A stretch of DNA of 25,550 bases from Carex sylvatica. Taxonomy: Eukaryota; Streptophyta; Magnoliopsida; Poales; Cyperaceae. Positions 5,508-22,243 of this stretch are shown one piece after another. Numbering within the stretch: position 1 is the first letter of the stretch; each line of letters starts with the position of its first letter. The stretch lies in contig CAXKVR010000699.1 of NCBI GenBank assembly GCA_964058845.1, forward strand, positions 1 through 25,550, written 5' to 3'. The translations under genes and the position numbers were made by a program. The notes below the pieces were generated by a model. That model had not been told where the DNA came from and did not search any database. It worked only from the letters and a program-made list of their open reading frames with translations.

Positions 5508-5740
5508 CCGATTTTTTTAATAATAAAAATTAAATAAATAAAATATCGGAATACGATACTGATTTTATTTTATTTTTAAATATGAGTAGAACGGGATGCT
5601 TGAACCCGTCCCATTGGACGGGACAAATTATCCCGTCCCGAAATCCGCTAATTACCGCTGATTACCACCCATTAATCAAAAAAAAAAAAAAACCAGGACG
5701 GGAAGGGTGGACCCGTCCCGGAAATGAAAAAAACAGAAAA
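5508..5740. repeat. MULE left terminal inverted repeat
   Basis: The outer ~100 bp match the right end with few mismatches (AAATATCGGAATACGATA shared). A GC-rich zone follows, with short hairpins made from GGACGGG and CCCGTCC, then one copy of a unit GACGGGAAGGGTGGACCCGT followed by an A-rich run. The inner limit is approximate because the A-rich part drifts. A pair of 22-bp direct repeats (TCTGCGAAGAAAAGAAGCTC type) lies further in, at 5866-5887 and 5889-5910, in what is probably the transposase leader. Confidence 0.82.
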
Positions 5741-5910
5741 AAAAAGAAAGAAAGAGGAGACGGGAAGGGAAGAACCGTCTCAAACTATTATTAATAAGAG
5801 AGAAGAGAAGAAAATCTATCGACAGAGAGAGAAATAAAATAGAGACAGACAGAGACAGAAGTTCATCTACGAAGAAAAGAAGCTCCAATCTGCGAAGAAA
5901 AGAAGCTCCA

Positions 5911-6096: not shown

Positions 6097-7473
6097 ATGT
6101 TAATGCTGAGTATTTATTTTGGTGGTGAAATACGACACGGTCGTAAAGGAGTGGAGTATAGTATTAGTCCTCGATTCTCATTAAGTGTAACTGATGAATA
6201 CGGTTGGTATGATGTGAAAGGTGAAATTTATCGCCAACTTGGATATTCCGAGAATGAATATAACCTAAAAGCACATGCACGGGTTAATGTTGGTACAACA
6301 GCCCGACGTTATTATGAGAAAATTGAAATCGTGTGCGATCAGAGTTGGAGAGCCAAGACCTTTATCTGCATCCTTATCCCAATGTTCAGACAGAATACAA
6401 TAATCAGAATAGCCCATGGATCGATCCACCGGAGGTAGCTGATCCTAATACTGATTTTGATGATGTGCCGCAAAGTGATGACGAAGACGACGCTGACTCA
6501 TGTGAGGATGACGCCGACTGGGATGATGAAAATGATTTAGAAGGGGATGTCCGGGATGATACCTCGACACAATCACACCAAACACACCGCGTTCAGGCTG
6601 AACATTTTCCTATATCTGACCGTGGTGTAAGTCACCCTGTAGCAAGCTTCAATGACACCTCAGCATTTCAACCCACATATGTCAACTTCTTCAGTAGGCC
6701 CCAACATCACCATGATACACTTGCAGTAGGTAATGAGTTCTTTTCAAAAGAGGCTCTACGATTGAAAATAAATGATTATCACATCAGAAAGAATATTGAA
6801 GTAAAAATTACATGGAGCAATAGAACTGGTATGGTAGTCAAATGCAAAGACACCATGTGTACGTGGCGTTTGTATGCCAAGTCGGGATTATTTTCATCTA
6901 AGTGGAAAATTAGAACAATTTCAGGGCCACATACATGCCATGCCGATGCTTCTCATACTGATCATGCACAATTAACTGCAGAAATGATTGCCGATGTTAT
7001 ACGAGAAGATATTAGGGAAAATGTTGCGTTAACCATTAAAAGCGTTAAAGGGCTAGTCCGTAGAGAATACAAGGGAATTACTCTAAAATATAACAAGTTG
7101 TAGCGTGGCCGAGAGCTGGCAATCGCACAACTATTCGGTAGTTGGGAAAAATCTTACAACCTTCTAACTCCACTGTTGGAAGCAATTAAAAGAGATAATC
7201 CAGGAACAAAATATGGAGTTGCGCACGAACCCACAGGAGATCCAACAGAAAGGTTGTTTAAGGCAGCTGCGTGGGCTTACGGTCCGTGCATTGCTGCAGT
7301 GCCTCATCTCAGACCAATCATTAGTATTGATGCATGCTTCCTTTCTGGTAGGTATCAAGGGAGATTGCTAATAGCGTGCGGTTACGATGCTGAGAACCAG
7401 TTGCTTCCTCTGGCTTTTGCATTAGTCGGGGAAGAGAGTTTTCAGACATGGGGATGGTTCATGAGGTGGTTGC
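6097..7473 (+). pseudogene. MuDR-type MULE transposase, N-terminal half (interrupted)
   Basis: N-terminal and central part of a MULE transposase. It begins MLMLSIYFGGE, typical of MuDR proteins. An acidic linker rich in D and E follows (6440-6560). The MuDR DNA-binding domain (about 6745-7000) has the zinc-type residues CKDTMC and GPHTCH. The start of the MULE catalytic domain (7310-7473) has SIDACF with the first catalytic aspartate, then YQGRLLIACGYDA and LPLAFALV. Defects seen: the frame changes near 6340 (codons 6097-6340 are in frame 1, the rest in frame 3), and an in-frame TAG at 7101-7103 interrupts the link between the two domains. The coding sequence then stops at 7473, where the Athila retrotransposon is inserted; the protein continues at 16393. 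Confidence 0.85.
7469..7473. repeat. Athila target-site duplication, left copy
   Basis: GTTGC directly before the left LTR, repeated at 16393-16397. Five bases is normal for Ty3/gypsy integration. Confidence 0.88.
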
Positions 7474-7792
7474 TGATCGTACTGGAATATATGCTACAAA
7501 GTTTCAGTATAGCAAGCTATACTTTTTAAACCTTTGTTATACTCTGTCAATTCAGATAGCAAGTGAACTATCCTGTCGTTGAGTATGCTCAGGTATCGAT
7601 CCACAGGGACGGAAGAAAAACACTAGACTTATCCTAAAATCACTTGAAATTCTAAAAGTGAGAGAAATTGGTTTGGTTTTAGTTCTAACAATTCTACTGA
7701 TTAAAAGACAATAAAAGATAATTAAAGTTATTTTCAATTGATAAAAAGGAGTTTCCAGGGTTCAGATTTCATTTCTGTTCAGTCTCAAGGCA

Positions 7793-7824
7793 TACGGCCC
7801 GTACAGATTCCCGTACGGTCCGTA
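7793..7824. repeat. Palindrome pair, 3' LTR, a
   Basis: TACGGCCCGTA at 7793 and TACGGTCCGTA at 7814, start-to-start 21 bp. The same pair is in the 5' LTR at 15254 and 15275. Confidence 0.9.
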
Positions 7825-8627
7825 TGGGACCTCAAGTTAATGCTGCAGCTACTGTTTTCTGTGTTGATACTGTGTTTAGGGTTTCTTTTGACCAGATCTA
7901 GATACCTAACCTCAACTTTCGCATTTTGGCCTAATACCCGATTACCGGACTCAAGTACTTCCCTCTTAGATGCGTTAAACCTCAACTTTCGTATTTTGGC
8001 CTAATTTATCTAAGTTACTTGTTAGTTTACTAAAAGTATCCAAGGACTTTCGCCTCAAGAAAAGTTTCGCCTTTCGGGTACTCCTTGGTTTCACCCTACT
8101 TCATATACTTTATTCGGTTGGAATGAATTTCATAGACTTGGCTCCTAACACTTAGATGTGCGCATTCATCTAACGGGATGACTAATCAGATTCAAGCAAG
8201 CACAAATAGAGCAATAAAAATACTACATAACAAAGTAAAAACAAAGCGTTCAACACAAAATCCAAGTAGCATACAAGCAAAATAAAACTAGAAACTACAT
8301 CTTACCCCTAGAAACTAAGTAAATTAGCTACTCATGTTCATAAGATAACACAAATAACAAGAAGTAAAAGAGTTCATGATAAAACAGTGGAAAATTCGAA
8401 GGTCCGTTCAAAACTTGCGTTCTTCCCTTCTCTTCTTCTTTTCCTCTCGTCCAAGCCAACCTCTCCTTCAATAGAATGATAATGGATGGAAAGTTATTGA
8501 TTGATTCGTTTTTCCTGCTGTGGAATATCTCCTTTAATGCCCCAGATCACGCCTCCAGGGGTTTCCTTTTCGGCTCCTCAAATCGTGCTCAATTCAGATT
8601 CCAGCTGGATTTTCCGAATCAGCGTTG

Positions 8628-8659
8628 TACGGCCCGTACAGGATCCCGTACGGACCGTA
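8628..8659. repeat. Palindrome pair, 3' LTR, b
   Basis: TACGGCCCGTA at 8628 and TACGGACCGTA at 8649, 21 bp apart; repeated in the 5' LTR at 16089 and 16110. Confidence 0.9.
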
Positions 8660-8728
8660 TGCCTGGGCTTTGTCTTGGAGACTTTGTGCCTCTGTTGTGG
8701 ATCCTTCTATGTGGTTGGGCAGAACTTG

Positions 8729-8760
8729 TACGGTCCATACAGAATATTATACGGGCCGTA
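8729..8760. repeat. Palindrome pair, 3' LTR, c
   Basis: TACGGTCCATA at 8729 and TACGGGCCGTA at 8750, 21 bp apart; in the 5' LTR the pair is at 16190 and 16211, where the first copy is the perfect TACGGTCCGTA. Confidence 0.9.
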
Positions 8761-8931
8761 TGAAAAGTAGTAAGAACCAGTTTTTCGCCATTTTTCCTAC
8801 AAAATACCAAACAAAGCATAGCAGTACCACATTTCATCTAAATACAAGTAAAAAGTCCACATTCATAGGCTTTAAAGCACAGATTTAATTGTAAATTAGG
8901 GCCATAATTTAGATATAATATGGAGATATCA

Positions 8932-8945
8932 AATCCCCCAAGCTT
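8932..8945 (-). other. Polypurine tract
   Basis: Minus-strand AAGCTTGGGGGATT directly before the 3' LTR, in the position where plus-strand DNA synthesis is primed. Near copies of the motif occur at 9246-9257 and 9807-9819. Confidence 0.8.
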
Positions 8946-9893
8946 GAACTTTGCTTGTCCTCAAGCAAAAATTCTAACTTAGGTGTGGTTTTGATTGTTG
9001 GACTTACCTAAATGCAAGTTAATCTACCAAGAGGGAAAATGTGCATGATCTTGCGTTCGTTAGAAATCTATTAGAGTCATTTTGGATAGTAATTCGGTTT
9101 TCTTTGGTCAACTTTGATTCACCCCACAATTCAATTAATCAAACCCTAACTTCAAGAATGTAATGCTATTTGTAAGAATTAAGCAATCAAACGTATCAAT
9201 AGTTCATTCTTTACCAAATTTATGCCCTCATTTGTGGTTGGAAATCCCCCCAAGCTTGGAACAAGCTTAGGTCAGAAAGTTGCGGACTTTGTGTGTTGAT
9301 GTATGTAAAGACTCTTCTCAGTTTTTTTTTTTTTTTTTTTTTATAGGTGTACGGTCCGTATGATCTGGGTACGGTCCGTATGGGAGACAAACTCAAAGGC
9401 GCCAAACATGGCTTATTGCCAGTACTCTTATATTCTCCATCTTTTCTCTTCGTATACATCATGAATACACACATCCAATGATATTCATTCATACCAATGG
9501 ATGTCCAAATCTTTCTATTGCTTTGAAATCCCATTTTTCTATTTTTACAAGGCATAGTCCGGTTTCAAATGCTTTCTTAACACAATTCAATTCAATCCCA
9601 CAAAGTCCCAAAACAGACTATCGTATACAGTTCTTTCAACCAAATGCGTGGTTATTTCTAATTTCCCTAATTCAACCATTTCACAACCCCAATTTCTCAA
9701 ATTGGACCCTAATTCACGCAATTCACACAAATTTAATTCTCAAGACATGCAAACACGAAAACAAACTAAATCAAACTAAATGCAAAATAAAGAAAATAAC
9801 TAATCACCCCCCCAAGCTTAGTCTGAGCATTGCCCTCAATGCTTCAAGACATGTAATGTAAAAATAAATAAGCTGGGGTTGGGAAAAACCTGA
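8946..9893 (-). other. 3' non-coding part of the Athila element
   Basis: Between the env-position ORF and the polypurine tract. AT-rich, with a run of about 20 T at 9322-9342, a palindrome pair at 9350-9360 and 9370-9380 (both TACGGTCCGTA), and two extra polypurine-like tracts (AAGCTTGGGGGG on the minus strand) at 9246-9257 and 9807-9819. No gene seen. Confidence 0.6.
9350..9380. repeat. Palindrome pair, 3' non-coding region
   Basis: Two TACGGTCCGTA copies, at 9350 and 9370, 20 bp apart (9-nt spacer TGATCTGGG). Confidence 0.9.
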
Positions 9894-11228
9894 TCAGTAG
9901 TCAGAGGAGGGGTCGAAGCGCCAGTCGCGAAACTGGTCCTCAATGTCACCAAGGTGCTCGTCATAGTCAGCCATGTACCCACTAATCTCATCCAGGCGAG
10001 TGGTGTGCTGAGCTGTCTGCTGCTGGATGGCGGTGATGTCACGGCCCTGCTGCAGCTGAGTGTCCCGGATGTCAGACAGGAGGGAGTAGATATCCCTAAG
10101 AGAGGGGTCAGCTGGGCAATGGTGTGCATACGCAGATGGAGGTGGCTGGGAGGAGGAACTGGGGATGTCCGAGTGAGGAGGTGGAGTCACAGAGACCAAC
10201 CAGGTGGAGGGGTCAGCCACAGAGATAGATGGGCCAAATGGGAGGCGGCGTGAAGATCCATCGACAAAGCGCCAGTCATAATAGTCAGAATGACCGGCGG
10301 GTCCGCGGGAGATCGAGAGGAAGAGGGCCTGGCGGAAGCTCTCGGGATCCATAAGAGTGGGGCCATGACAGATGTCGCGACCCGGATACGCCCCCAATCC
10401 GAGGCGTTGCTTGATGACCTCGACATAGGCTCCAATTTTTATCTTCCCACCCGGCTTGTTCTTGGCTTGCTGACCAAGCCAATGTTGGACCATGAGAAGG
10501 GCCAAGTCCGGATACTCAGGGGCGGGACGGAGCATAGTGTCCATGAGCATGAGGTCGATGCTGTTGGCGCGGTTCTGAGTCTCACCGCGCGCGAAGATGG
10601 TAGAGGCAAGGGCGCGCTGGATAATACGAAGAACCAGGTGAGGGATGTAGCGGGCGCGATAGTGGGCATTTGCTGATCGAGGGCAGCCGGTGATCATGGC
10701 CCAGAAGGTATCGCGATCCCATCCCGCTCGGAAACTGAGGGTGTCAGTAGAGGGTGTACTATGGAAACCGAACCATTCGCGTAAAAGAGAGAGATAGACG
10801 CGTTGGGTTCGATTGCACAGGCGGAATTTGAGGAATGGGACATCCTGGTTGTCCAACTTGAGCTCGAGAGAGGAGAGGAATTCCTTGGTGTCCATCTCAT
10901 AGGCGGGATGGTGAAGGTTCCAGAAATCTTGGCTGAACCCAATCCTAGTGGTGAGGGTGAGGAAATCATCTTCCACTCCAAAGCTGTGTAGTGTGTCGAG
11001 GTGGACCATGGCAGTGTTCTCAAAAACCTTATTTTGTAAAGAGATGAAATTCTCGTACATCCGACGAGTGGGCATGTCAAAATACCGTGCCGCAAAGCGG
11101 TCGGCGCGATCAGTGTATTCGCCAGAGGAGGTTTGTTCAGCGCCGGAGTCATAGGGCTCCGGGGATGAATGGCGGGGTGGTGTGGGGGAGCGGTCCTGGC
11201 ATCGTTTTTGACGGTGCTCACCAGACAT
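9894..11228 (-). CDS. Athila env-position ORF, 444 aa, function unknown
   Basis: Intact 444-codon ORF between integrase and the polypurine tract, where Athila and related elements carry an extra 'env-like' ORF. N-terminal ~45 residues are polar and disordered-looking (SPTPPRHSSPEPYDSG). A folded region follows with MYENFISLQNKVFENTAMVH, then RARYIPHLVLRIIQRALAST and FARGETQNRANSIDLMLM, reminiscent of the Athila ORF family of plant transposon proteins. After a proline/serine linker (VTPPPHSDIPSSSSQPPPSA) there is a probable coiled coil (LLSDIRDTQLQQGRDITAIQ...). I see no signal peptide and no membrane segment, so an envelope role is not supported. It is the only long gene of the element, besides integrase, without a break. 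Confidence 0.75.
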   Translation of the reverse strand: MSGEHRQKRCQDRSPTPPRHSSPEPYDSGAEQTSSGEYTDRADRFAARYFDMPTRRMYENFISLQNKVFENTAMVHLDTLHSFGVEDDFLTLTTRIGFSQDFWNLHHPAYEMDTKEFLSSLELKLDNQDVPFLKFRLCNRTQRVYLSLLREWFGFHSTPSTDTLSFRAGWDRDTFWAMITGCPRSANAHYRARYIPHLVLRIIQRALASTIFARGETQNRANSIDLMLMDTMLRPAPEYPDLALLMVQHWLGQQAKNKPGGKIKIGAYVEVIKQRLGLGAYPGRDICHGPTLMDPESFRQALFLSISRGPAGHSDYYDWRFVDGSSRRLPFGPSISVADPSTWLVSVTPPPHSDIPSSSSQPPPSAYAHHCPADPSLRDIYSLLSDIRDTQLQQGRDITAIQQQTAQHTTRLDEISGYMADYDEHLGDIEDQFRDWRFDPSSDY

Positions 11229-11247
11229 ATCTGTCAGTTGAAACTGG

Positions 11248-11321
11248 TACGGGCCGGATGAGGTTTTGTACGGGTCGGACGGCTATCGGTACGGGCCGGA
11301 TGGGTAGGTGTACGCGCCGTA
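11248..11321. repeat. Run of four palindromes upstream of the env-position ORF
   Basis: Starts at 11248, 11269, 11290 and 11311, exactly 21 bp apart: TACGGGCCGGA, TACGGGTCGGA, TACGGGCCGGA, TACGCGCCGTA. Somewhat degenerate. The nearest copy ends 20 bp from the ORF start codon at 11228. Confidence 0.85.
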
Positions 11322-11806
11322 GGGTTTAAGGTTTGCGCAGAGGGAAAAGAGGCGGCGGGTAGTAGAGCTGGTGGATGCGGTGGCTATGTAGAAGGTGTTG
11401 TCGGCGAGGCTGTGGAGGTGTTGAGACGGCGAGCCGATGGGGTGATGCGCTGCTACAGATGGAGAACGGGTGGCTGGTGTGAATGAGAGAGTGGCGGCGG
11501 CTAGGGCTTAGTGATCCGCTAGAGGCGGAGAAAAAGGTGGTGGAGATCCGGTGGTTGGTGTGCTGTAAGAGGCGGAAAGCGGCGGTTGGTGCGGAGGAGA
11601 AGGCGGCGGCTGGTTAGGGTTTGTGGTACGGGGTGGTGTTCGGTCCGTAGGAAGAAAACGACAAGAGTTGGTGGGGTGGGTAAGGTCTGTCGGGGGGGGT
11701 CGGGTATAAAAGGGGAGAGGGTCTAGTCGAAGGGACGGGAGTTAAGTCGAAGGGACGCGAAGAGAGAAGGTCGCGCCCCTTGAGGTTTTGCGTCGGATGG
11801 GTGACC

Positions 11807-11838
11807 TACGGCCCGTATGAAATTTGGTACGGACCGTA
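11807..11838. repeat. Palindrome pair after integrase
   Basis: TACGGCCCGTA at 11807 and TACGGACCGTA at 11828, 21 bp apart, about 210 bp past the integrase stop on the minus strand. Confidence 0.9.
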
Positions 11839-12050
11839 CCAACCCCCAGAAATGGTTTCTTCTGATATCTGCTCAGAATTGAAAAATAACAACTACAAAT
11901 TGAAAAGTCAGAATTAAACTAATATAAAACTAAATATTCAGAAACTAAAACAAAAATAAAAGAAATGACTAAACATAACAATTTTAAAGGTTCTTGGGTT
12001 GCCTCCCAAGAAGCGCTCGTTTTAGGTCCTTAGCTAGACCACCTTACAAC

Positions 12051-14096
12051 TTAAGCTTCCATCGGAGCGGGGTCAGTAAGAAACTGAACACTCCGCTCAT
12101 TCATCAAGTGGTCAGCAACGTAGTGCTTGAGACGCTGACCATTTACCTTGAAGGTCCCACTTTCTTTGCTCCAGATATCAACCGCTCCGAAGGGGTACAC
12201 TTTCTCCACCTGAAATGGGCCAGACCATCTTGATTTGAGTTTACCTGGAAAAATTCTCAATCTAGCATTAAATAAAAGTACAAGATCTCCCTCTTTGAAC
12301 TGGCAAGGCGAAATGCGCTGGTCGTGTAATCGCTTCGTCTTTTCCTTGTAAAATTTTGCATTCTCATACGCATGCAACCTCATTTCCTCCAGCTCATGCA
12401 AGTCGAGGACACGCTTTTCTCCAGCTGCAAGCAGGTCCATGTTGATCGCTCTTGTGGCCCAAAATGCCTTGTGCTCAATTTCAACGGGAAGGTGACACGG
12501 CTTTCCATACACCAGCTTGTAAGGGCTCATGCCAATCGGTGTCTTGAAGGCGGTGCGGTAGGCCCAAAGTGCATCATGCAGCTTGAAAGCCCAATCCTTC
12601 CTCGTCCTTGCGACCGTCTTCTCTAAAATCGACTTGATTTCCCTGTTGAAAATCTCAGCTTGGCCATTAGTTTGAGGGTGATAAGAAGTGGATACCTTGT
12701 GAGTCACCCCATGTCGGCTCAAGAGTTTTTTGAATTGTCGATTGATGAAGTGCTTGCCTTCGTCACTGATGACAGCTCGAGGCACCCCAAAACGAGGGAA
12801 AATGATCTCATTGAAAAACTTTCTTACCGAATTCGTGTCAGCTTTGCGGCACGCCATTACCTCAACCCACTTTGATACATAGTCGACTGCCACCAAAATA
12901 TACTCATTCCCTTGAGAAGAGGGGAATGGACCCATGAAATCGATGCCCCAAACATCAAAAATCTCAATCTCAAGAATAAAGTTGAGAGGCATCTCACTTC
13001 GTCTTGTCATGTTTCCGGTCCTTTGGCACCTGTCACAAGCTATAACAAAAGATCTTGCATCTTTAAAAAGAGAAGGCCAAAAGAAACCAGATTGTAATAC
13101 CTTGGCAGTGGTCTTAGAGAATGAAGAGTGTCCTCCATAAGCGGACGAGTGGCAATGTGCAAGAATAGAGTCTGTTTCCTCAAGTGGTACACAACGTCGG
13201 AATACGCCATCGACTCCAACTTTGAAGAGGTAGGGCTCATCCCAAAAGTAGTACTTGGAATCCGACCTTAGTTTCTTCTTATGTTGTTGGGACATTGTAG
13301 CGGGCAAAACTCCAGAGACCAGGTAATTTGCGATGTCGGCATACCAGGGAGCTTGCTGTTTGGTTTGGTTGGCATTTGTACGGTCCATATGAATTTGTGT
13401 ACGGTCCGTATGTTGGATTATACAGGCCGTATGAACTTCTGTACGGCCCGTATGGATGTCGTCCAGATCAGAATTGATTGCAAGGAGTTGTTCATCTGGG
13501 AATGAGTCATTGATCGGGAACTTAGTTGTGGTATCTTCTTCCTAATGAAGACGTGACAGATGGTCCGCCACAGAGTTCTCGACTCCTTACGTATCCTTTA
13601 TCTCGAGATCAAACTCCTGCAAAAGAAGAATCCATCTAATCAGTCTTGGTTTTGCATCTTTCTTACTTAAGAGGTACCTTAGTGCGGCATGATCTATGTA
13701 GACCACTATCTTCGAGCCCACCAAATACGATCTGAATTTGTCGAGAGCAAATACAATGGCGAGCAGCTCCTTTTCGGTTGTGGTGTAGTTCATTTGGGCC
13801 GGATCTAGCACCTTGCTAGCATAGTAAATAACACACGGCTTTTTGTCTTTCTGCTGCCCCAGAACTACTCCGACTGCATAGTCGCTTGCATCGCACATCA
13901 ACTCAAACGGTAGTGACCAATCTGGCGGTTGTAAGATAGGTGCAGAGATAAGAGCTTCCTTTAAACTGCAAAAAGACTTGACACAATCATTAGTGAAAAT
14001 AAAATCAGAATCTTTAATAAGTAAATTGGTCAAAGGTTTCGCGATTTTCGAGAAGTCCTTTATGAAACGGCGATAAAAACTGGCATGTCCAAGAAA
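12051..14096 (-). pseudogene. Athila pol remnant: RT C-terminus, RNase H and integrase
   Basis: One continuous frame from about 14096 to 12051. First the end of reverse transcriptase ([15 protein letters not shown]), then RNase H ([45 protein letters not shown]). Two in-frame stops follow: TAA at 13589-13587 and TAG at 13544-13542. A linker holding four 7-residue repeats ([28 protein letters not shown]) leads to integrase. Integrase shows the HHCC zinc finger ([10 protein letters not shown]...CDRCQ), the catalytic D (GIDFMGPF), D (VISDEGKHF) and E ([12 protein letters not shown]), and the GPF-type C-terminal module (RWSGPFQV). Integrase itself (13388-12051) is open. Protease and the reverse transcriptase catalytic core are deleted. 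Confidence 0.9.
13379..13452. repeat. Run of four palindromes inside pol
   Basis: Starts at 13379, 13400, 13421 and 13442, exactly 21 bp apart (TACGGTCCATA, TACGGTCCGTA, TACAGGCCGTA, TACGGCCCGTA). They lie in the reading frame between RNase H and integrase and are translated as four 7-residue repeats. Confidence 0.9.
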
Positions 14097-14650
14097 ACTG
14101 GCATGTCCCTAAACCTTTCCCAGGCCTCATTCAGTGGTTCATCAGACCTTTGTTTGAAACTGGTCAGTTGGGTCCTAACCTTGGCAGTTCTTTTATGGGG
14201 GAAAAATCTGGTCAAAAACAGTTTGGACAATTCCCTCCAAGTGATAATTGAATCCCTTGGTAATGACCCTAACCATTTCTTGGCTTTATCCCTAAGAGTA
14301 AAAGGAAATAAAGCAAGTCTAATATAATCAGCTATTGCGCCATTAATTTTAATGGTGGCACAGCATTCAAGGAAGGTCTGAACATGGGCATGCGGATCCT
14401 CATGATCCATGCCATGGAATGTGTTTTGCTGCACGATGTTGACAACGCCTGGATTGAAGTTGGGTTGGTTGCCGACAATCCTTGGCAATCGGATTGCTCC
14501 TCTAACATCTCCAGCTCTCGGGACATTGAACTCTCGCAACGTCCTTGGCGCATAGTTTGCTCCTTCGTCATTAGAGTATTGATCCTCGTTGGGTTGACCT
14601 TGTCCAGTACCCTCGTTGAGTGGATCCTGTTCAGCACCGTGGTTGTTCAT
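14097..14650 (-). pseudogene. Athila gag, N-terminal part, truncated
   Basis: Start of the retrotransposon Gag. It begins MNNHGAEQDP with a polar leader, then the retrotransposon gag domain: PHAHVQTFLE, IRLALFPFTL, KKWLGSLP, FLTRFFPHKRTAKVR and [11 protein letters not shown], in the order known for Athila gag. The native gag stops after WERFRDM at about 14105. From there the sequence is the end of reverse transcriptase in another frame, so translation runs on briefly to a stop at 14060. The C-terminal half of gag with the CCHC zinc knuckle is missing. Confidence 0.85.
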
Positions 14651-14910
14651 TTTACTTTGTTCTGGATCTGTCTGGCCTCTGTTGTCGGTTTGTACGGCCT
14701 GTATGAATCTTGTACGGGCCGTACGGAGAGGTGACAGATGTGGTGGCGCTAGAACAAATGTGTTGGAAGTTTGCCCTTTGCTTCTGAGATGGTAATGGTT
14801 CTTGGGCAGTGACTCTTCCAGTATGTTCCTGCAAAGATGGAATACGAAAAATTAAAATTAAAATCTAGAATCAAGCAAAAATAAGAAAAAGTATAGAATT
14901 TTAGTTGCCG
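14651..14910 (-). other. Athila untranslated leader
   Basis: Region between the primer-binding site and the gag start. It carries a pair of the palindromes at 14693-14703 (TACGGCCTGTA) and 14713-14723 (TACGGGCCGTA), 20 bp apart, the nearer one about 43 bp upstream of the gag ATG. No gene is called here. Confidence 0.6.
14693..14723. repeat. Palindrome pair upstream of gag
   Basis: TACGGCCTGTA at 14693 and TACGGGCCGTA at 14713, 20 bp apart (9-nt spacer TGAATCTTG). Confidence 0.9.
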
Positions 14911-14928
14911 TCCCCGGCAACGGCGCCA
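14911..14928 (-). other. Primer-binding site, tRNA-Asp type
   Basis: Minus-strand TGGCGCCGTTGCCGGGGA, six bases inside the 5' LTR. It is complementary to the 3' end of plant tRNA-Asp (from memory), the primer usual for Athila elements. Confidence 0.85.
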
Positions 14929-14934
14929 AAAACT

Positions 14935-16392
14935 TGATCGCACTGGAATATATGCTACAAAGTTTCAGTATAGCAAGCTATACTTTTTAAACCTTTGTTA
15001 TACTCTATCAATTCAGATAGCAAGTGAACTATCCTGTCGTTGAGTATGCTCAGGTATCGATCCACAGGGACGGAAGAAAAACACTAGACTTATCCTAAAA
15101 TCACTTGAAATTCTAAAAGTGAGAGAAATTGGTTTGGTTTTAGTTCTAACAATTCTACTGATTAAAAGACAATAAAAGATAATTAAAGTTGTTTTCAATT
15201 GATAAAAAGGAGTTTTCAGGGTTCAGATTTCATTTCTGTTCAGTCTCAAGGCATACGGCCCGTACAGATTCCCGTACGGTCCGTATGGGACCTCAAGTTA
15301 ATGCTGCAGCTACTGTTTTCTGTGTTGATACTGTGTTTAGGGTTTCTTTTGACCAGATCTAGATACCTAACCTCAACTTTTGTATTTTGGCCTAATACCC
15401 GATTACCGGACTCAAGTACTTCCCTCTTAGATGCGTTAAACCTCAACTTTCGCATTTTGGCCTAATTTATCTAAGTTACTTGTTAGTTTAGTAAAAGTAT
15501 CCAAGGACTTTCGCCTCAAGGAAAGTTTCGCCTTTCGGGTACTCCTTGGTTTCACCCTACTTCATATACTTTATTCGGTTGGAATGAATTTCATAGACTT
15601 AGCTCCTAACACTTAGATGTGCGCATTTATCTAACGGGATGACTAATCAGATTCAAGCAAGCACAAATAGAGCAATAAAAATACTACATAACAAAGTAAA
15701 AACAAAGCGTTCAACACAAAATCCAAGTAGCATACAAGCAAAACAAAACTAGAAACTACATCTTACCCCTAGAAACTAAGTAAATTAGCTACTCATGTTC
15801 ATAAGATAACACAAATAACAAGAAGTAAAAGAGTTCATGATAAAACAGTGGAAAATCCGAAGGTCCGTTCAAAACTTGCGTTCTTCCCTTCTCTTCTTCT
15901 TTTCCTCTCGTCCAAGCCAACCTCTCCTTCAATAGAATGATAATGGATGGAAAGTTATTGATTGATTCCCTTTTCCTGCTGTGGAATATCTCCTTTAATG
16001 CCCCAGATCACGCCTCCAGGGGTTTCCTTTTCGGCTCCTCAAATCGTGCTCAATTCAGATTCCAGCTGGATTTTCCGAATCAGCGTTGTACGGCCCGTAC
16101 AGGATCCCGTACGGACCGTATGCCTGGGCTTTGTCTTGGAGACTTTGTGCCTCTGTTGTGGATCCTTCTGTGTGGTTGGGCAGAACTTGTACGGTCCGTA
16201 CAGAATATCATACGGGCCGTATGAAAAGTAGTAAGAACCAGTTTTTCGCCATTTTTTCTGCAAAATACCAAACAAAGCATAGCAGTACCACATTTCATCT
16301 AAATACAAGTAAAAAGTCCACATTCATAGGCTTTAAAGCACAGGTTTAATTGTAAATTAGGGCCATAATTTAGATATAATATGGAGATATCA
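14935..16392 (-). repeat. 5' LTR of the Athila element
   Basis: 1458 bp, the LTR next to the primer-binding site, so the 5' LTR on the minus strand. It starts (minus strand) TGATATCTCC and ends CGATCA. It contains three pairs of the TACGGNCCGTA palindrome (15254/15275, 16089/16110, 16190/16211), each pair 21 bp apart, and a 26-bp direct repeat (CCTCAACTTT..ATTTTGGCCTAAT) with a 70-bp period near 15370-15465. All transcription signals should lie here, but no TATA box was assigned. Confidence 0.9.
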
Positions 16393-16397
16393 GTTGC
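16393..16397. repeat. Athila target-site duplication, right copy
   Basis: GTTGC directly after the right LTR, identical to 7469-7473; the MULE transposase frame resumes here. Confidence 0.88.
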
Positions 16398-17744
16398 GTA
16401 TGGAGGTAATTGGTAATAAGTTCATGTGCGTTGTTTCTGATCGGCACATGGGGATCAAGAAAGTATTCACCGATAGATATGGTGGTTGGTACGAGAATGG
16501 TGGCGAGTGCGTTCACAGATTGTGCTCACAACACATTGCCGAGAATTTGATGAAAAAAGTACACAATAAAAAACTCTGTGACCTATTTAAAATACTTGTG
16601 AACAAAAAAAAACCACGGAGGTTTGAGGAGTTCTTCGAAATATTACGAAAGAAAAATCCAAATGCAGTTGCGTATTTAAATAATGACGGTAAATATCAAG
16701 ATACCAACCATAATGAGATCCCTAAACCATGGAAGGTGTATCAATGCATGGACAACGGCGCTCGTTGGGGAATTATGACTACTAACGGATCTGAATCGTT
16801 GAATGCAGTATTCAAATGTAGCAGGAGATTGCCAGTTGTGGCACTCATGGAAGACACATATTATAAGTGTCTCGCTTGGTTTAGGGATAGACGAGAGAAA
16901 GCAATGACTCGCCTAGCTAGTCAACAACTCTGGTCAGAGCGAGTTGAAAAGCTATTAGCAAAAAGAATAAAAAAATGTCTGGAAATAAATTCCATGCCAC
17001 TTGGTGTGCACGGTGAACACAAGGTCAAGGTGAATGATGAAAGGGTCGTGTACAAAGAACGAGACGGAAATTTTACTTATAAAAAAGAAACTTTCCGGTA
17101 TAAGGTCATCATAAGTGATGGAAATATAGCACAATGTGCATGTCTCAAACCACAGCTTACAGGTATACCATGTGCTCATGTACTTGCCATGTGTCAGAAC
17201 CGGAGATACAACCATAACATATTCGTAAATCAATTGTATTCCGCAAAGACACTTGCCGAAACTTGGAGTGGCCAATTTCACGGCTTTGCCAACCAATGTG
17301 AATGGCCACGTTATGACGGTCTAACTATTGTTCCGGATAAAAATAAAATTAAGAAAGGTAGGAGAAAGCACGCTCGTATAGTCATGACGATGGATGAAAT
17401 GCAAGGAATGAGAGTGGGACACCAATCTAGACGTTCGACGTCCGACAGACGTGCAGCAGGTTGGTTAATTTTATTTTCAACAACTGATTTTTGGTTTTAT
17501 TTCCATTTGAAATATATGTACATAATATATTAATGACTATCATATTGTGTTATTGGTTTAGAGGCTTCTTCTAGTAGGACAATGGGACAGCAAGCAAGAC
17601 GTTCTACGTCTGACATACATGCAGCAGGTTTTGTAAAATTTTAATATTTATTATTGTTTTTACTTATCCAAAAATTGTGTATTCTACTTAATATTTTTTT
17701 AATTTTCTTTTGCAGGAACATCTTCTGGTTATAGGCGAAGATGA
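16393..17744 (+). pseudogene. MuDR-type MULE transposase, C-terminal half
   Basis: Continuation of the transposase after the nested retrotransposon, in the matching codon phase. CVVSDRH holds the second catalytic aspartate; GSESLNAVFK and LMEDTYYKCLAWF are typical of the later catalytic domain. A SWIM zinc finger (CACLKPQLTGIPCAHV) lies near 17130-17180. Splice sites suggest the main exon ends at 17459 (GCAGCAG|GTTGG), a 66-bp exon runs 17562-17627, and a last exon 17716-17744 ends in TGA. The 66-bp exon repeats the end of the previous exon (RRSTSD..AA in both). The whole is listed as a pseudogene because the N-terminal half is broken by a stop, a frame change and the insertion; this half itself reads open. 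Confidence 0.85.
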
Positions 17745-18084: not shown

Positions 18085-21038
18085 TCAAAAGTGAACATAT
18101 CTGGTGCTCGACGATCTCGCTCTGGGTATAACTTCTTGATTGTTCGCTCTCCTACGCCTGACATAAACATTATTGTATGATGGAAAAAAGGCCTCTACTG
18201 CTTGTGTACGTGGCGTAACGACCGGACTAGGTCCTATGTTGTCTTGTGCACCAGTAAAATCTAGCGGGGCCAACCCGATATGATCCGAATCCTGCAATAA
18301 TCATTTTAGTATTTAATAAATATAATCGATTATCATTTAAATAAAATAAAATTATTTTGAAATTATTACCTGATATACTGGACTAGGTCCTGTATGACCC
18401 ATGTATTGCGCATCATGAGGATACGCCTGATCGTATGTATGGTCCCAACTGACAAATGTATTAACTCCCTGTAATAATTATTTTATTATTAATAACAAAC
18501 ATAATAAACGATTAGTTAAAATTTATTTCAGGAGAGATAAAATTACTTGATAGACCTGACTAGGTCCTGCGTTGTCTTGTTCGAACGTGATAGGAACCTG
18601 TGATTCCTATAATAATTACTTTAGTACTTAATAAACTATATAAATGATTATTAAAATTAAAAATCTTAAGTGAGGAAATTAATACCTGATGGACCTGACT
18701 AGGTACTGTGTGATGAACTGGTACGTACCCCGGGTTGTCCAACAACTCTGACATGAACTGCCCAACTGGGTCCTCCGTTCCCTATAAAAATAATTTAGTA
18801 TTGTAATAACAAACTCGACGATTATTTCTAATTTCTTAGAGTATTAAATAATTACCTGACAGTCCTGACTAGATTCTACGTTGCCTTGTGCGGTGGTGCC
18901 ATGATCATCCCCTCCATATAATTAATATTTTACTATCTTAGTAAACACAATCGACAACCAATGAAAATATTTTTTTAATACTTACCAGATCAACCTGACT
19001 AGGTCCAGTTTCAAAGGTTCTGAGATATTCAGTTAACCCGTCATTTGTTTCTATCCATCTATCATGATAGTTGGGGTCTAAATCTTGCGGCAAGTTGGGG
19101 ATGGGTTCTGGATTATCACCATCTGATATGTCATTGATATTGTCTGGAAGATCGACCGCCCTCAACATACTTTGCAATTTAGCATCCATACCGTTGTCTC
19201 TGAGAAGGCCACAACTTGCTTTGAGAAAAAATTTCCCTATTTTCTTGAGTGCTCTTGATTTCGTCAATCCTATAGCTGCTGATATTATTTTTATCCCTCG
19301 TAATAACTATAAAATAAAAAAAGTTGTAAATTCACTGAAAAAATAATATCATCTTATAAATATTTCTAATTTATAAAACTTACATCACGTGTCAATTTTG
19401 GGGCACCGGGAATGCACCCTACTTCACCAGTCTCATCTCTATATTCTGGAACGGGATCGTCAAGACCCTCTATGCACTGTCTTCCTAAGAATATATTGAA
19501 CATGCCATTATTCTGGAACCAACTTCGATATGGCAATATGTCGTAGTGACTCCAATATCCGGTTGCAACAACTAAGTGGTTTTCTGGATTATATGCCTCA
19601 TTTACGTAATTCTGATGCACATTAGACCAATTTACTAATCCCACATTAGAACTGTGAACAAATTTATGCAACCGGCGTACCTCATCCTCGGAGAGCAGCA
19701 GTGGTGGCGGGATGGGCTGTGCATATCCGAACTGCCGCATCACACGATCTGGGTAATAATGCTCAATTATCCAAAAGTGCACAAGTGGTACACGAGCTAG
19801 CCATACATCCCTTTCATTAATAACTCGTGATGGCAGCTTACACGGTATCTCATTTAACATCGCATTGTAAGGCTCCCATTTTACCATGTAATCTTCGAGA
19901 TCCTGTAGTTGATTGCGGAAGTAACTAACTCCACTCCGATTGTGACCTTGTTGATAATCATGGAGACAACACCACTTATCACTGAATGCTGGACACTCTT
20001 CTTGATTTGGCATGCCCCAATCTGGACTCCAATTATGTAAGGGACGAGGACAACCGGTCGGTAAATGAGACCAACACCAATGTTGTAGAAGCACGGTTGA
20101 TCCTGACATACACTTTGTTTTACGCCGAACCGCAACACAAAGGCTTCTGTAGAGATAAGCTAGAACAGCCCCACCCCAGTTGTGCTATTCCGGAGAATCA
20201 AGATTTACTAGAAATTGTAAGTACATTGCCGGAACCGAATCTCCCGATGAATCGACAAAAAAGATAGACCCGAACAAATCGAGTACATACGCCCTTGTGT
20301 ACTGACGTACCTGCTCCTCTGTTGGCTCACCCTCTTGAGTGTTTAGCATTGCAGCAAATCGATTACGCAACTCCTTCAAATTTATAGCATACCCAGAAGT
20401 TGTTCGAACCTCTGCCGCATCGTTTGGCCCCGATCTCTTCTTCTTTTTAAGCACCGCACTTACGGTCCATTTCCAAGAAGCTGATCCACTAAGATAGACC
20501 AAGTACGGTCTGAAGGACCCGTCACCGGTAATCCCATGATCGGCAGTGCCCAGAGACAAGAAACATCCTGTAGTGTTATTGTCATCTCTCCCACGGGAAG
20601 ATGAAAACTGTGGGTCTCTGGTCTCCATCGCTCCACGAGACCAGCGAGGAGTGCTGGATCAATTTTTATGTGATCCATTTGAGAAACCTGATACAAACCG
20701 AGTCTAAGCAAAAATGGTTTGCAAAGGTCATTGTACGCAATCCTAGTCCAGACATTTCGAGGTTCCACTCCTATATCTCTGTAATCCTGTCAACGTTATA
20801 TAAATTGATTAAAATAAAATATTGTAATTCAAATATGTATATAATATTTTATAAAAAAATATATTATATGATTAATGGAGTAACTTACATTGTCATAGAT
20901 TCGTGAGATCTTATGTTGGTCATGCGGCATCCATAATAAATTGCTAAAATTACTTGCTGACCATGCCGGATCAAAACCAACATCATCATATGCAGCTGCA
21001 GCATCTGAAGTGCCACACGGATTACGACTGCTTGACAT
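18085..21038 (-). pseudogene. Plant mobile domain (PMD, MAIN-like) gene carried by the MULE
   Basis: Gene for a protein with the plant mobile domain (Aminotransferase-like, PF10536), the family of MAIN/MAIL1, host nuclear proteins that help silence transposons; related genes are also carried by transposons. Exons by splice signals: 21038-20889 (MSSSRNPCGTS start), 20786-19384 (PMD), 19306-18986, then short exons 18911-18856, 18781-18686, 18606-18547, 18468-18370 and last 18291-18085. PMD marks: LVERWRPETHSFHLPVGEMT, LWALPIMGLPVTG, RSGPNDAAEVRT, GYAINLKELRNRFAAM and NWGGAVLAYLYRSLC. Breaks: an indel near 20462 shifts the frame, an in-frame TAG sits at 20187-20185, and exon 18911-18856 has a length (56) that does not keep frame. 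The three other internal short exons are multiples of three. Otherwise about 780 codons. Confidence 0.85.
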
Positions 21039-21944
21039 TCTACATGCATAACGTTTTGAAAGAATTAATAACAATCTAAATTTACTAACCATTCACATTA
21101 TTAAATAAATTACTAAATTAAGCAAATACCTATGAACTATAAAACACACATGAACATTATTGAGAAAAATTAAGAAATAGATAAAATAAGAGATTAATAA
21201 ATTATCTAATTTATCACTTCTTGCAAAATACACTTAACAAACTAATAAAATTAAATCTAGTTAATTCAATTCATTTTCATAATAAATTAAAAAAAATAAG
21301 TACCTACATTACCTAAATTACTTGCATTACTAAAAATCCAAAATGAATGAACTATGAACTTTATGCTAAAATATTCTCAAAATAATATTACGAATTATTC
21401 ATATCTAATAAATTGCAACTAATCTCAACAATAATTAAAATAATACTATCAACCTTCTCAATTATATGCTATGGACTAATTTAAATAAATAAATTAAACG
21501 AAATTAATTTTATCATATCAAATGGTTTAAAAATAAATTAATTATTCTAAACTCTAATTTATCAATTCTTTTAATTTATAATTAACAAACTAATAAAATT
21601 CACTATAATTAGATAATAAATTAAATTGAAACTTATTATTAATTAATTTCTATACTAATTTATTTTAATTTTATATAAATAAAAAAATTACCTTGAAAAA
21701 AAATGAGAGAAATGAGAGAAGTCGGCAGAGGAGATAAAAGGCAGTAGAGATCCGGACGGGCTACTGTAATCCGTCCTAGCACCGACGCCGTTTTTCCTTT
21801 CTTCTTCGGAGGGGGTAGACAGCGAAATATTTCGCAGACAGAGAGAGACAGAGAAGGCAGAGAGAGAGAGTTTGGCAGGGAGTGATGTAAGAAGAAGGGT
21901 ATGGGACGGGTTGGATTGTCCCGTCCCTATTTTTTTTTTTTCGT
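21039..21944 (-). promoter_or_regulatory. PMD gene leader and upstream region
   Basis: CATGTAG|AATGTC just before the start codon (about 21042) is a good splice acceptor. TTTCAAG|GTAATTTT near 21691 is a good donor, so a 5' UTR intron of about 650 bp of very AT-rich DNA is likely. The first leader exon (about 21690-21900) is pyrimidine-rich on the minus strand, next to the right terminal repeat, which probably acts as promoter. Inferred from motifs. Confidence 0.45.
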
Positions 21945-22243
21945 TTTTTTTCATTTACGGGACGGGTCTACCCTTCCCGTCCCGGTTTTTTTTTTTTTTT
22001 TTTTCGTTTTTTTCATTTGCGGGACGGGTCCACCCTTCCCGTCCCGGTTTTTTTTTTTTTTTTTTTTTTTAAGCTTGATTAAGATTAGACGAGGATTATG
22101 CAAATACATTTTGGGACGGGTTAATCTGTCCCGTCCCATCGGACGGGTTAACTCATCCCATTCTACTCATATTTAAAAAAAAAAAAAATCAATATCGTAT
22201 TCCGATATTTTATTTATTTAATTTCTATTATTAAAAAAATCGG
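21945..22243. repeat. MULE right terminal inverted repeat
   Basis: Reverse complement of the left terminal repeat over the outer ~100 bp. The inner GC-rich unit (GACGGGTCCACCCTTCCCGT plus poly-T) occurs twice, at about 21959-21985 and 22021-22047, against once on the left. Several GGGACGGG...CCCGTCCC hairpins are present (21903-21928, 22113-22138). This end is longer than its partner because of the extra unit and the T runs. Confidence 0.82.

What the first reader, a model, noticed from the sequence alone, without database searches (positions are those of the whole stretch)
7793..16221. Family of TACGGNCCGTA palindromes on an exact 21-bp grid at every module boundary of an Athila retrotransposon
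About 26 copies of an 11-bp palindrome occur in this element: six in each LTR, and 14 internal (9350, 9370; 11248, 11269, 11290, 11311; 11807, 11828; 13379, 13400, 13421, 13442; 14693, 14713). None stands alone. Start-to-start spacing is 21 bp in all but the 9350 and 14693 pairs (20 bp). Spacers in the internal copies share a loose TGAATTTG pattern, while the flanking sequence differs. They sit upstream of gag, between RNase H and integrase, after integrase, before the env-position ORF, and before the PPT. Two readings fit. (1) 21 bp is two helical turns, so a dimeric DNA-binding protein would see all sites on one face. (2) Because each unit is self-complementary, neighbours can pair in RNA as an ~11-bp stem with a 10-nt loop, a possible packaging, translation or processing signal. 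Each unit also carries two CpGs. I know of no described Athila feature like this.
Basis: partly seen in the sequence, partly recalled or inferred. Interest (0 to 1): 0.87.

Follow-up and report, generated by a model that had tools for sequence, protein, structure and literature searches.

The report
Family-specific palindrome arrays in Athila retrotransposons
A plant jumping gene, probably from a sedge, carries paired 11-letter mirror-image DNA tags two helix turns apart in its ends and in the gaps between its protein domains; related families carry their own versions, which suggests that each family marks its own DNA for a specific binding protein.

Summary
In detail: 26 TACGGNCCGTA units on a 20/21-bp grid (18 exact; shuffles give none). 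The window copy is internally deleted. Longer relatives carry further pairs in the gag-protease and protease-RT linkers, within an open pol frame and in three reading frames, so protein-level selection does not explain them. Genome-wide: 1166 exact units (reversed word 23), 401 close pairs (0).

Palindrome columns vary less among copies than matched columns; spacers vary more than other non-CpG columns. Neighbouring units show no compensatory change. Ten sedge (Carex, Rhynchospora) Athila proteins have 20 linker peptide pairs compatible with such dyads (0.4 expected); 102 other listed proteins have 1.

Best reading: arrays of binding sites for a dimeric, family-specific DNA-binding protein, perhaps element-encoded. 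Shown: anatomy, conservation, family specificity. Inferred: the protein and its effect. Closest known: Sirevirus CGG-CCG repeated motifs and VANC/VANDAL target motifs. New variant of a known kind.

The parts
14935..16392 (-). 5' LTR (1458 bp) with three pairs of units at 16211/16190, 16110/16089 and 15275/15254
   Evidence: LTR-LTR alignment 98.56%; unit positions
7474..8931 (-). 3' LTR with three pairs at 8750/8729, 8649/8628 and 7814/7793
14693..14723 (.). pair (20 bp) between the primer binding site region and gag
   Evidence: gag ORF 14060-14650; PBS-like stretch next to the LTR (PBS identity recalled)
14060..14650 (-). gag fragment (PF03732)
13599..14006 (-). RNase H domain, 95% identical to relative L013; no protease or RT match in the window
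13379..13452 (.). four-unit array on a 21-bp grid in the RNase H - integrase linker
   Evidence: linker comparison
12051..13388 (-). integrase (H2C2 zinc binding + rve core)
11807..11838 (.). pair (21 bp) downstream of integrase
11639..11649 (.). lone unit with one mismatch, probably the remnant of a second pair
   Evidence: homology inferred from distance
11248..11321 (.). four-unit array just upstream of the ORF1 start (ATG at 11228, minus strand); units here carry 1, 2, 1 and 1 mismatches, sense-strand left half mostly TCCGG/TCCGA
9894..11228 (-). ATHILA ORF-1 (PF03078), 444 aa; AF2 model with a globular part and a long C-terminal helix (377-437)
9350..9380 (.). pair (20 bp) between ORF1 and the 3' LTR

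Best explanation
The palindromes are arrays of protein-binding sites in DNA. Each unit is a dyad of two half-sites separated by one free base (roughly YRCGR-N-YCGYR); units recur every 20-22 bp, two helical turns, so dimers would sit side by side on one face of the double helix. Each well-sampled Athila family has its own half-site word repeated at its sites, so the trans-acting partner is probably family-specific and most simply element-encoded; ORF1 (PF03078), found in at least one copy of every family examined and modelled with a long C-terminal helix that could dimerise, is the leading but untested candidate. Sites every 0.6-1.7 kb from LTR to LTR, even inside polyprotein linkers, would let an element mark its own copies and activate them or protect them from silencing, as VANC proteins do for VANDAL transposons. 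Shown: sequence, positions, period, family specificity, conservation. Inferred: binding by protein, which protein, the effect.
For: Unbiased scan of all 1024 odd 11-bp dyads: the commonest is TACGG.. in A (170 of 415), CACGG.. in B (9 of 33), CCGCA.. in C/D (12 of 46), TGCGG.. in E (19 of 31); the commonest in four background pieces is AAAAA.. (5 of 77). Genome counts against the reversed word: 1166 v 23, 256 v 0, 2314 v 3, 280 v 5. Same-orientation half-sites within 30 bp are 19-22 bp apart in 20 of 21 (B), 31 of 34 (C/D), 18 of 19 (E), 2 of 3 (B') and 167 of 258 (A, where overlapping CCGTACGG adds 9- and 12-bp classes). 200 palindrome columns: summed diversity 3.37 v 8.06 +- 1.24 expected, 0 of 5000 stratified permutations as low. 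Units in 3 reading frames of one open pol frame (8, 2, 2 of 12). Sites between integrase and ORF1 in A, B, C, D and E. Linker peptide pairs compatible with such dyads: 20 v 0.42 expected in 10 sedge proteins, 1 v 0.24 in 102 others.
Against: No binding protein shown. ORF1 has no significant PDB fold match (0 of 218 at E<=0.001) and its only Pfam match is PF03078. Athila of other plants also have ORF1-type proteins (PMC11728184, passage), yet 101 of 102 proteins not named as sedge lack the linker signal, so ORF1 alone does not explain it. ORF1 matches lie near only 8 of the 12 fetched relatives. B' and F give no winner in the unbiased scan (TGCGA 1 of 10; 0 dyads). C/D/E linkers that could be cut lack sites at gag-PR and RNase H-IN. 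In the leader, palindrome CpGs vary more than other CpGs (0.100 v 0.052), and in the LTR the CpG difference is small (0.038 v 0.045). Family B half-sites are not strictly symmetric. The period could partly be inherited from a common ancestral array.
Confidence: 0.55

Rival explanations
1. RNA signals: units pair with neighbours, or with the same unit in a second genomic RNA, giving family-specific dimerisation or packaging.
For: Each unit is self-complementary and family-specific palindromes would favour like-with-like pairing; units lie along the whole element.
Against: No covariation between neighbours (centre 22 of 84 v 22.5 shuffled; compensation 6 of 86 v 3.5 shuffled). Flanking bases give A.C (outer, 45 of 67) or C.A (inner, 37 of 67) mismatches in distinct pairs. 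The innermost pair (G..C in A, A..T in B') is kept across one base, which a single-unit hairpin cannot use. A 20-22-bp period has no obvious RNA reason. Intermolecular dimerisation is not excluded.
Confidence: 0.17
2. Host transcription-factor sites: cis-regulatory motifs for the LTR promoter and an internal ORF1 promoter, read by host proteins, as proposed for Sirevirus repeated motifs.
For: LTR position 172-304 of about 1458 and upstream of ORF1 resembles Sirevirus RM placement (PMC2829016, section 9 read).
Against: Sites also in gag-PR, PR-RT and RNase H-IN linkers within an open coding frame; commonest words differ between families of one genome, which one host factor would not require. 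No TATAWA box found in the two window LTRs or the 873-nt pre-ORF1 stretch.
Confidence: 0.18
3. Mobile or neutral minisatellite: a 21-bp palindromic repeat that spread by duplication or insertion into tolerant linkers, without function.
For: RNase H-IN linker is 177-198 bp in A/B (3 sequences) against 84-87 bp in C/D/E (5 sequences), consistent with inserted arrays; a B-type LTR has six CACGG-led units in a row where family A has one pair at what looks by eye like the same LTR position.
Against: Units conserved while spacers vary more than other non-CpG columns in all 5 segments; spacers do not resemble the flank after the second unit (70 of 352 positions identical v 0.26 shuffled); each well-sampled family has its own word.
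Confidence: 0.1

Closest known systems
Sirevirus repeated motifs (RM), Ty1/copia; Bousios 2010, PMC2829016 (abstract, section 9 and passages read)
   Same: Family-specific palindromes, CGG-CCG core in all but one of 13 elements, at least eight copies each, clustered in the upper half of the LTR and mostly upstream of the env gene.
   Different: Athila here is Ty3/gypsy by gene order. Sites also lie inside gag-pol at domain linkers and between ORF1 and the 3' LTR, on a 20-22-bp grid. The parts I read describe no unit spacing and no sites in pol; the paper calls the RM Sirevirus-specific, as absent from the classic retrotransposons compared.
VANC target motifs of VANDAL transposons; Hosaka 2017, PMC5735166 (passages read), Sasaki 2023, PMC10398659 (abstract and outline seen)
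   Same: Short motifs, often in tandem repeats, within the element, differing by family and recognised by an element-encoded protein.
   Different: VANDALs are Mu-like DNA transposons; the word palindrom does not occur in the 2017 text and the motifs sit in noncoding regions. Here no protein is shown to bind and some sites are in coding sequence.
Maize Sirevirus palindromic LTR motifs linked to small RNAs; Bousios 2016, as described in PMC10760457 (passages read; the 2016 paper was not held)
   Same: Clusters of palindromic motifs in LTR retrotransposons, possibly forming structure seen by the host.
   Different: Small-RNA data could not be tested here; neighbouring units show no covariation.

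Membership tests
Athila (Ty3/gypsy) | Gene order gag-PR-RT-RNase H-IN | tested here: met
   One open frame in relative L013 has PR, RT, RNase H and integrase H2C2 in that order; the window copy has gag, RNase H and IN
Athila (Ty3/gypsy) | ATHILA ORF-1 (PF03078) 3' of integrase | tested here: met
   E 4.1e-15; 67 matches genome-wide
Athila (Ty3/gypsy) | RT phylogeny within Tat/Athila | not tested
   no tree built
Sirevirus repeated motif | Palindrome with CGG-CCG core, repeated at least eight times | tested here: met
   for A, B, E; in C/D the tight unit is CCGCA-N-TGCGG, in B' the core is CGA-TCG
Sirevirus repeated motif | Location in LTR upper half and before the env ORF | tested here: met
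   LTR 172-304 and array next to the ORF1 start; but also at LTR 1108-1139 and in pol
Sirevirus repeated motif | Host element is a Ty1/copia Sirevirus | tested here: not met
   Ty3/gypsy gene order
VANC/VANDAL-type anti-silencing | Family-specific motif arrays within the element | tested here: met
VANC/VANDAL-type anti-silencing | Element-encoded protein binds the motif and removes methylation | not testable with these tools
   no binding or methylation data; ORF1 fold gave no match
VANC/VANDAL-type anti-silencing | Mu-like DNA transposon | tested here: not met
   LTR retrotransposon
RNA stem-loop or dimer signal | Compensatory change between neighbouring units | tested here: not met

The most novel reading that the evidence does not exclude
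Athila retrotransposons of sedges carry a private DNA address code: each family installs its own dyad, in helically phased arrays, in the LTRs, before ORF1 and in the polyprotein linkers that tolerate it, and an element-encoded dimer reads only its own word to activate or un-silence its own copies. This would be an LTR-retrotransposon counterpart of VANC/VANDAL; because sedges are holocentric (PMC6070107, passage) the arrays could instead serve chromosome-wide placement of these elements.
Probability: 0.33. Interest if true: 0.87.

Novelty: new variant of a known kind. Interest (0 to 1): 0.74.

Why it matters
Selfish elements must tell their own DNA from the host's. A family-specific dyad code threaded even through coding linkers would be a naturally diversified set of binding specificities within one genome, open to direct test (does protein X bind word X?). 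It would also join two separate observations, Sirevirus palindromes and VANC targets, into a wider pattern across unrelated plant mobile elements, and would bear on how Athila persists in holocentric plants.

Tried and rejected
Protein-level selection on a YGPY-like heptad: rejected, units occupy all three frames of one open pol frame and occur in LTRs. RNA pairing between neighbours: no covariation. Recent tandem duplication as cause of the period: spacer and downstream flank are not alike. Identifying ORF1 as a DNA-binding fold: fold search and sequence search against solved structures gave nothing usable. IMG/VR for relatives: nothing. Literature: the four palindrome strings (one genome-assembly software paper in the listing), Athila+palindrom+retrotransposon (26 papers, 15 listed; passages of PMC6911290, PMC12046899 and PMC3212565 seen, none describes this), CGG-CCG+retrotransposon (the Sirevirus paper only), Athila with Cyperaceae or Carex (Eleocharis paper PMC6070107, passages seen, 'palindrom' does not occur in it). 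A LTR-only conservation test on 16 copies was weak (CpG p 0.08, other p 0.03); I then ran the stratified multi-segment test, in which the segments IN-ORF1 (1 copy) and ORF1-PPT (3 copies) were dropped as too few. L016 was left out of the family sets because it also holds B-type units; it is in the A set and also in the B set.
Full report
Observation. The exact 11-mer occurs 18 times in the window; 100 dinucleotide shuffles give none. One further unit at 11639 stands alone. The element is on the minus strand: 5' LTR 14935-16392, 3' LTR 7474-8931 (98.56% identical), GTTGC on both flanks, inserted between Mu-like transposase fragments (the MuDR match, 23.5 bits, is below its cut-off of 25). Pfam finds gag, integrase and ATHILA ORF-1; RNase H is present and protease and RT give no match.

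Relatives of the same family. The window belongs to a 64-Mb unnamed assembly. It holds 1166 exact units against 23 for the reversed word and 401 pairs with an 8-12-nt gap against 0. For gaps of 13-43 nt there are 27 pairs, all with a 31-nt gap, i.e. two grid steps across a decayed middle unit. In 16 pieces, 212 units with at most one mismatch have their next neighbour at 20 (31 cases) or 21 bp (68 cases) and at no other distance below 42; 18 of the 212 have none within 45 bp, one of them outside the element in the window. Four arbitrary 10-kb pieces show no unit. The longer copies have two pairs in the gag-PR linker, two in the PR-RT linker and the four-unit array in the RNase H-IN linker; in L013 all 12 lie within one 1148-codon open frame, outside the Pfam domains, in frames 8, 2 and 2.

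Sister families have their own words. A protein search of the assembly listed 88 places, from 95% (apart from the query's own place) down to 47% identity. I fetched 12 of the more divergent ones. In the PR-RT linker they show CACGG-type units (B; L025, L026), TGCGGNCCGCA (E; L032, L033), alternating TGCGG and CCGCA with the tight unit CCGCANTGCGG (C/D; L029-L031, L035, L036) and one ACACGGCC..GGCCGTGT (F; L034); L027 and L028 (B') are degenerate there, with TGCGANTCGCA clearest in the L027 gag-PR linker. Genome counts against the reversed word: TTGCGGNCCGCAA 256 v 0, AGTGCGN{1,12}CGCACT 2314 v 3, CACGGNCCGTG 280 v 5, CACGGCCN{0,9}GGCCGTG 6 v 0. Of the 50 places listed for AGTGCG..CGCACT, 48 are 14 or 23 bp long although 13-24 were allowed. 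An unbiased scan of all odd 11-bp dyads picks a different CG-containing winner in A, B, C/D and E, and a non-CG one with 5 of 77 in background; B' and F give no winner.

Common geometry. The half-site words differ, and in C/D the tight unit is turned inside out, but the same-orientation period is 20-22 bp in A, B, C/D and E (B' has only three pairs). Sites recur in LTRs: in A, in E by position (C1:226131/226214 and 237132/237215, an exact 11001-bp offset), and in a C/D-type element by an exact 7047-bp offset of three sites; the last two are inferred to be LTRs from the offsets. Sites lie between integrase and ORF1 in A, B, C, D and E. A B-type LTR piece has six CACGG-led units at 20 bp, three of them full dyads. 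C/D/E lack sites in the gag-PR and RNase H-IN linkers that could be cut; the latter is 84-87 bp there against 177-198 bp in A/B.

Selection. Over LTR (20 copies), leader (8), gag-PR (5), PR-RT (5) and RNase H-IN (6) segments, 200 palindrome columns have summed diversity 3.37 against 8.06 +- 1.24 expected by permutation within segment and CpG class; 0 of 5000 as low. Non-CpG spacer columns vary more than other non-CpG columns in all 5 segments. Against this: leader CpGs are more variable inside the palindromes, LTR CpGs nearly equal, two segments had too few copies, and copies are related, so columns are not fully independent evidence.

RNA reading. Among 84 distinct neighbouring pairs the centre bases are complementary in 22 (shuffled 22.5), and 6 of 86 deviating bases are compensated in the neighbour (shuffled 3.5 +- 2.5; 535 of 2000 shuffles reach 6); 4 of 86 are compensated within the unit. 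Outer and inner flank positions are mostly A.C or C.A.

Other species. A search with the linker and RT start found 2537 proteins, 120 listed. The ten listed under sedge names (five Carex rostrata, five Rhynchospora) formed the sedge set; Carex rostrata and Rhynchospora breviuscula are Cyperaceae. I had looked at the linkers before designing the test. For 112 of the 120 at least one linker could be cut. Windows whose codons could encode a dyad, in pairs 19-22 nt apart, number 20 in the 10 sedge proteins (expected 0.42; 8 of 10 proteins) and 1 in the other 102 (expected 0.24); single windows also exceed shuffles in the others (84 v 54). Examples: ISDRN repeated seven residues apart can be read as ATTTCGGACCGAAAT; DATRI is what the L027 gag-PR linker encodes. 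This is compatibility, not DNA evidence. That the window's host is a sedge is inferred from these hits only.

Which protein? ORF1 is present in at least one copy of every family examined and near 8 of the 12 fetched relatives, with an AF2 model of mean pLDDT 77.9 and a long C-terminal helix, but no PDB fold match and no Pfam match other than PF03078. It stays a candidate. The Sirevirus repeated motifs (PMC2829016) share core, family specificity, LTR position and the place before env, in another superfamily; VANC targets (PMC5735166) share the logic of family-specific motif arrays. I found no report (searches named in Tried and rejected) of phased arrays inside polyprotein linkers of Ty3/gypsy elements or of such a diversity of words within one genome.

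Noticed in passing
window 5508-5779 and 21930-22243: Long inverted repeats (four reported arm pairs, 86-93% complementary) about 16 kb apart enclose Mu-like transposase fragments (6333-7103, 16394-17533) and a plant mobile domain gene (19366-20109): probably a MULE carrying a PMD gene, split by the Athila insertion.
   Followed up: partly
window 14006-14120: Junction of the internal deletion (gag fragment next to RNase H); a short repeated stretch lies at the join.
   Followed up: no
G000 C896 (8-11917): Three LTR segments and three ORF1 matches at equal 4327-bp steps: a tandem LTR/ORF1 array, perhaps from unequal recombination.
   Followed up: no
L013, L006, L025 and the window LTRs: A pair-to-pair distance of 101-102 bp recurs in the LTR, gag-PR and PR-RT linkers of family A and once in B; unexplained.
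   Followed up: no
G000 C692, C109, C44 (family F): The ORF1 match lies directly after a shortened RT match: possible RT-ORF1 fusion or deletion derivative.
   Followed up: no
window 11705-11711: TATAAAA on the plus strand in the IN-ORF1 spacer, i.e. antisense to the element; no TATAWA on the sense strand there.
   Followed up: no
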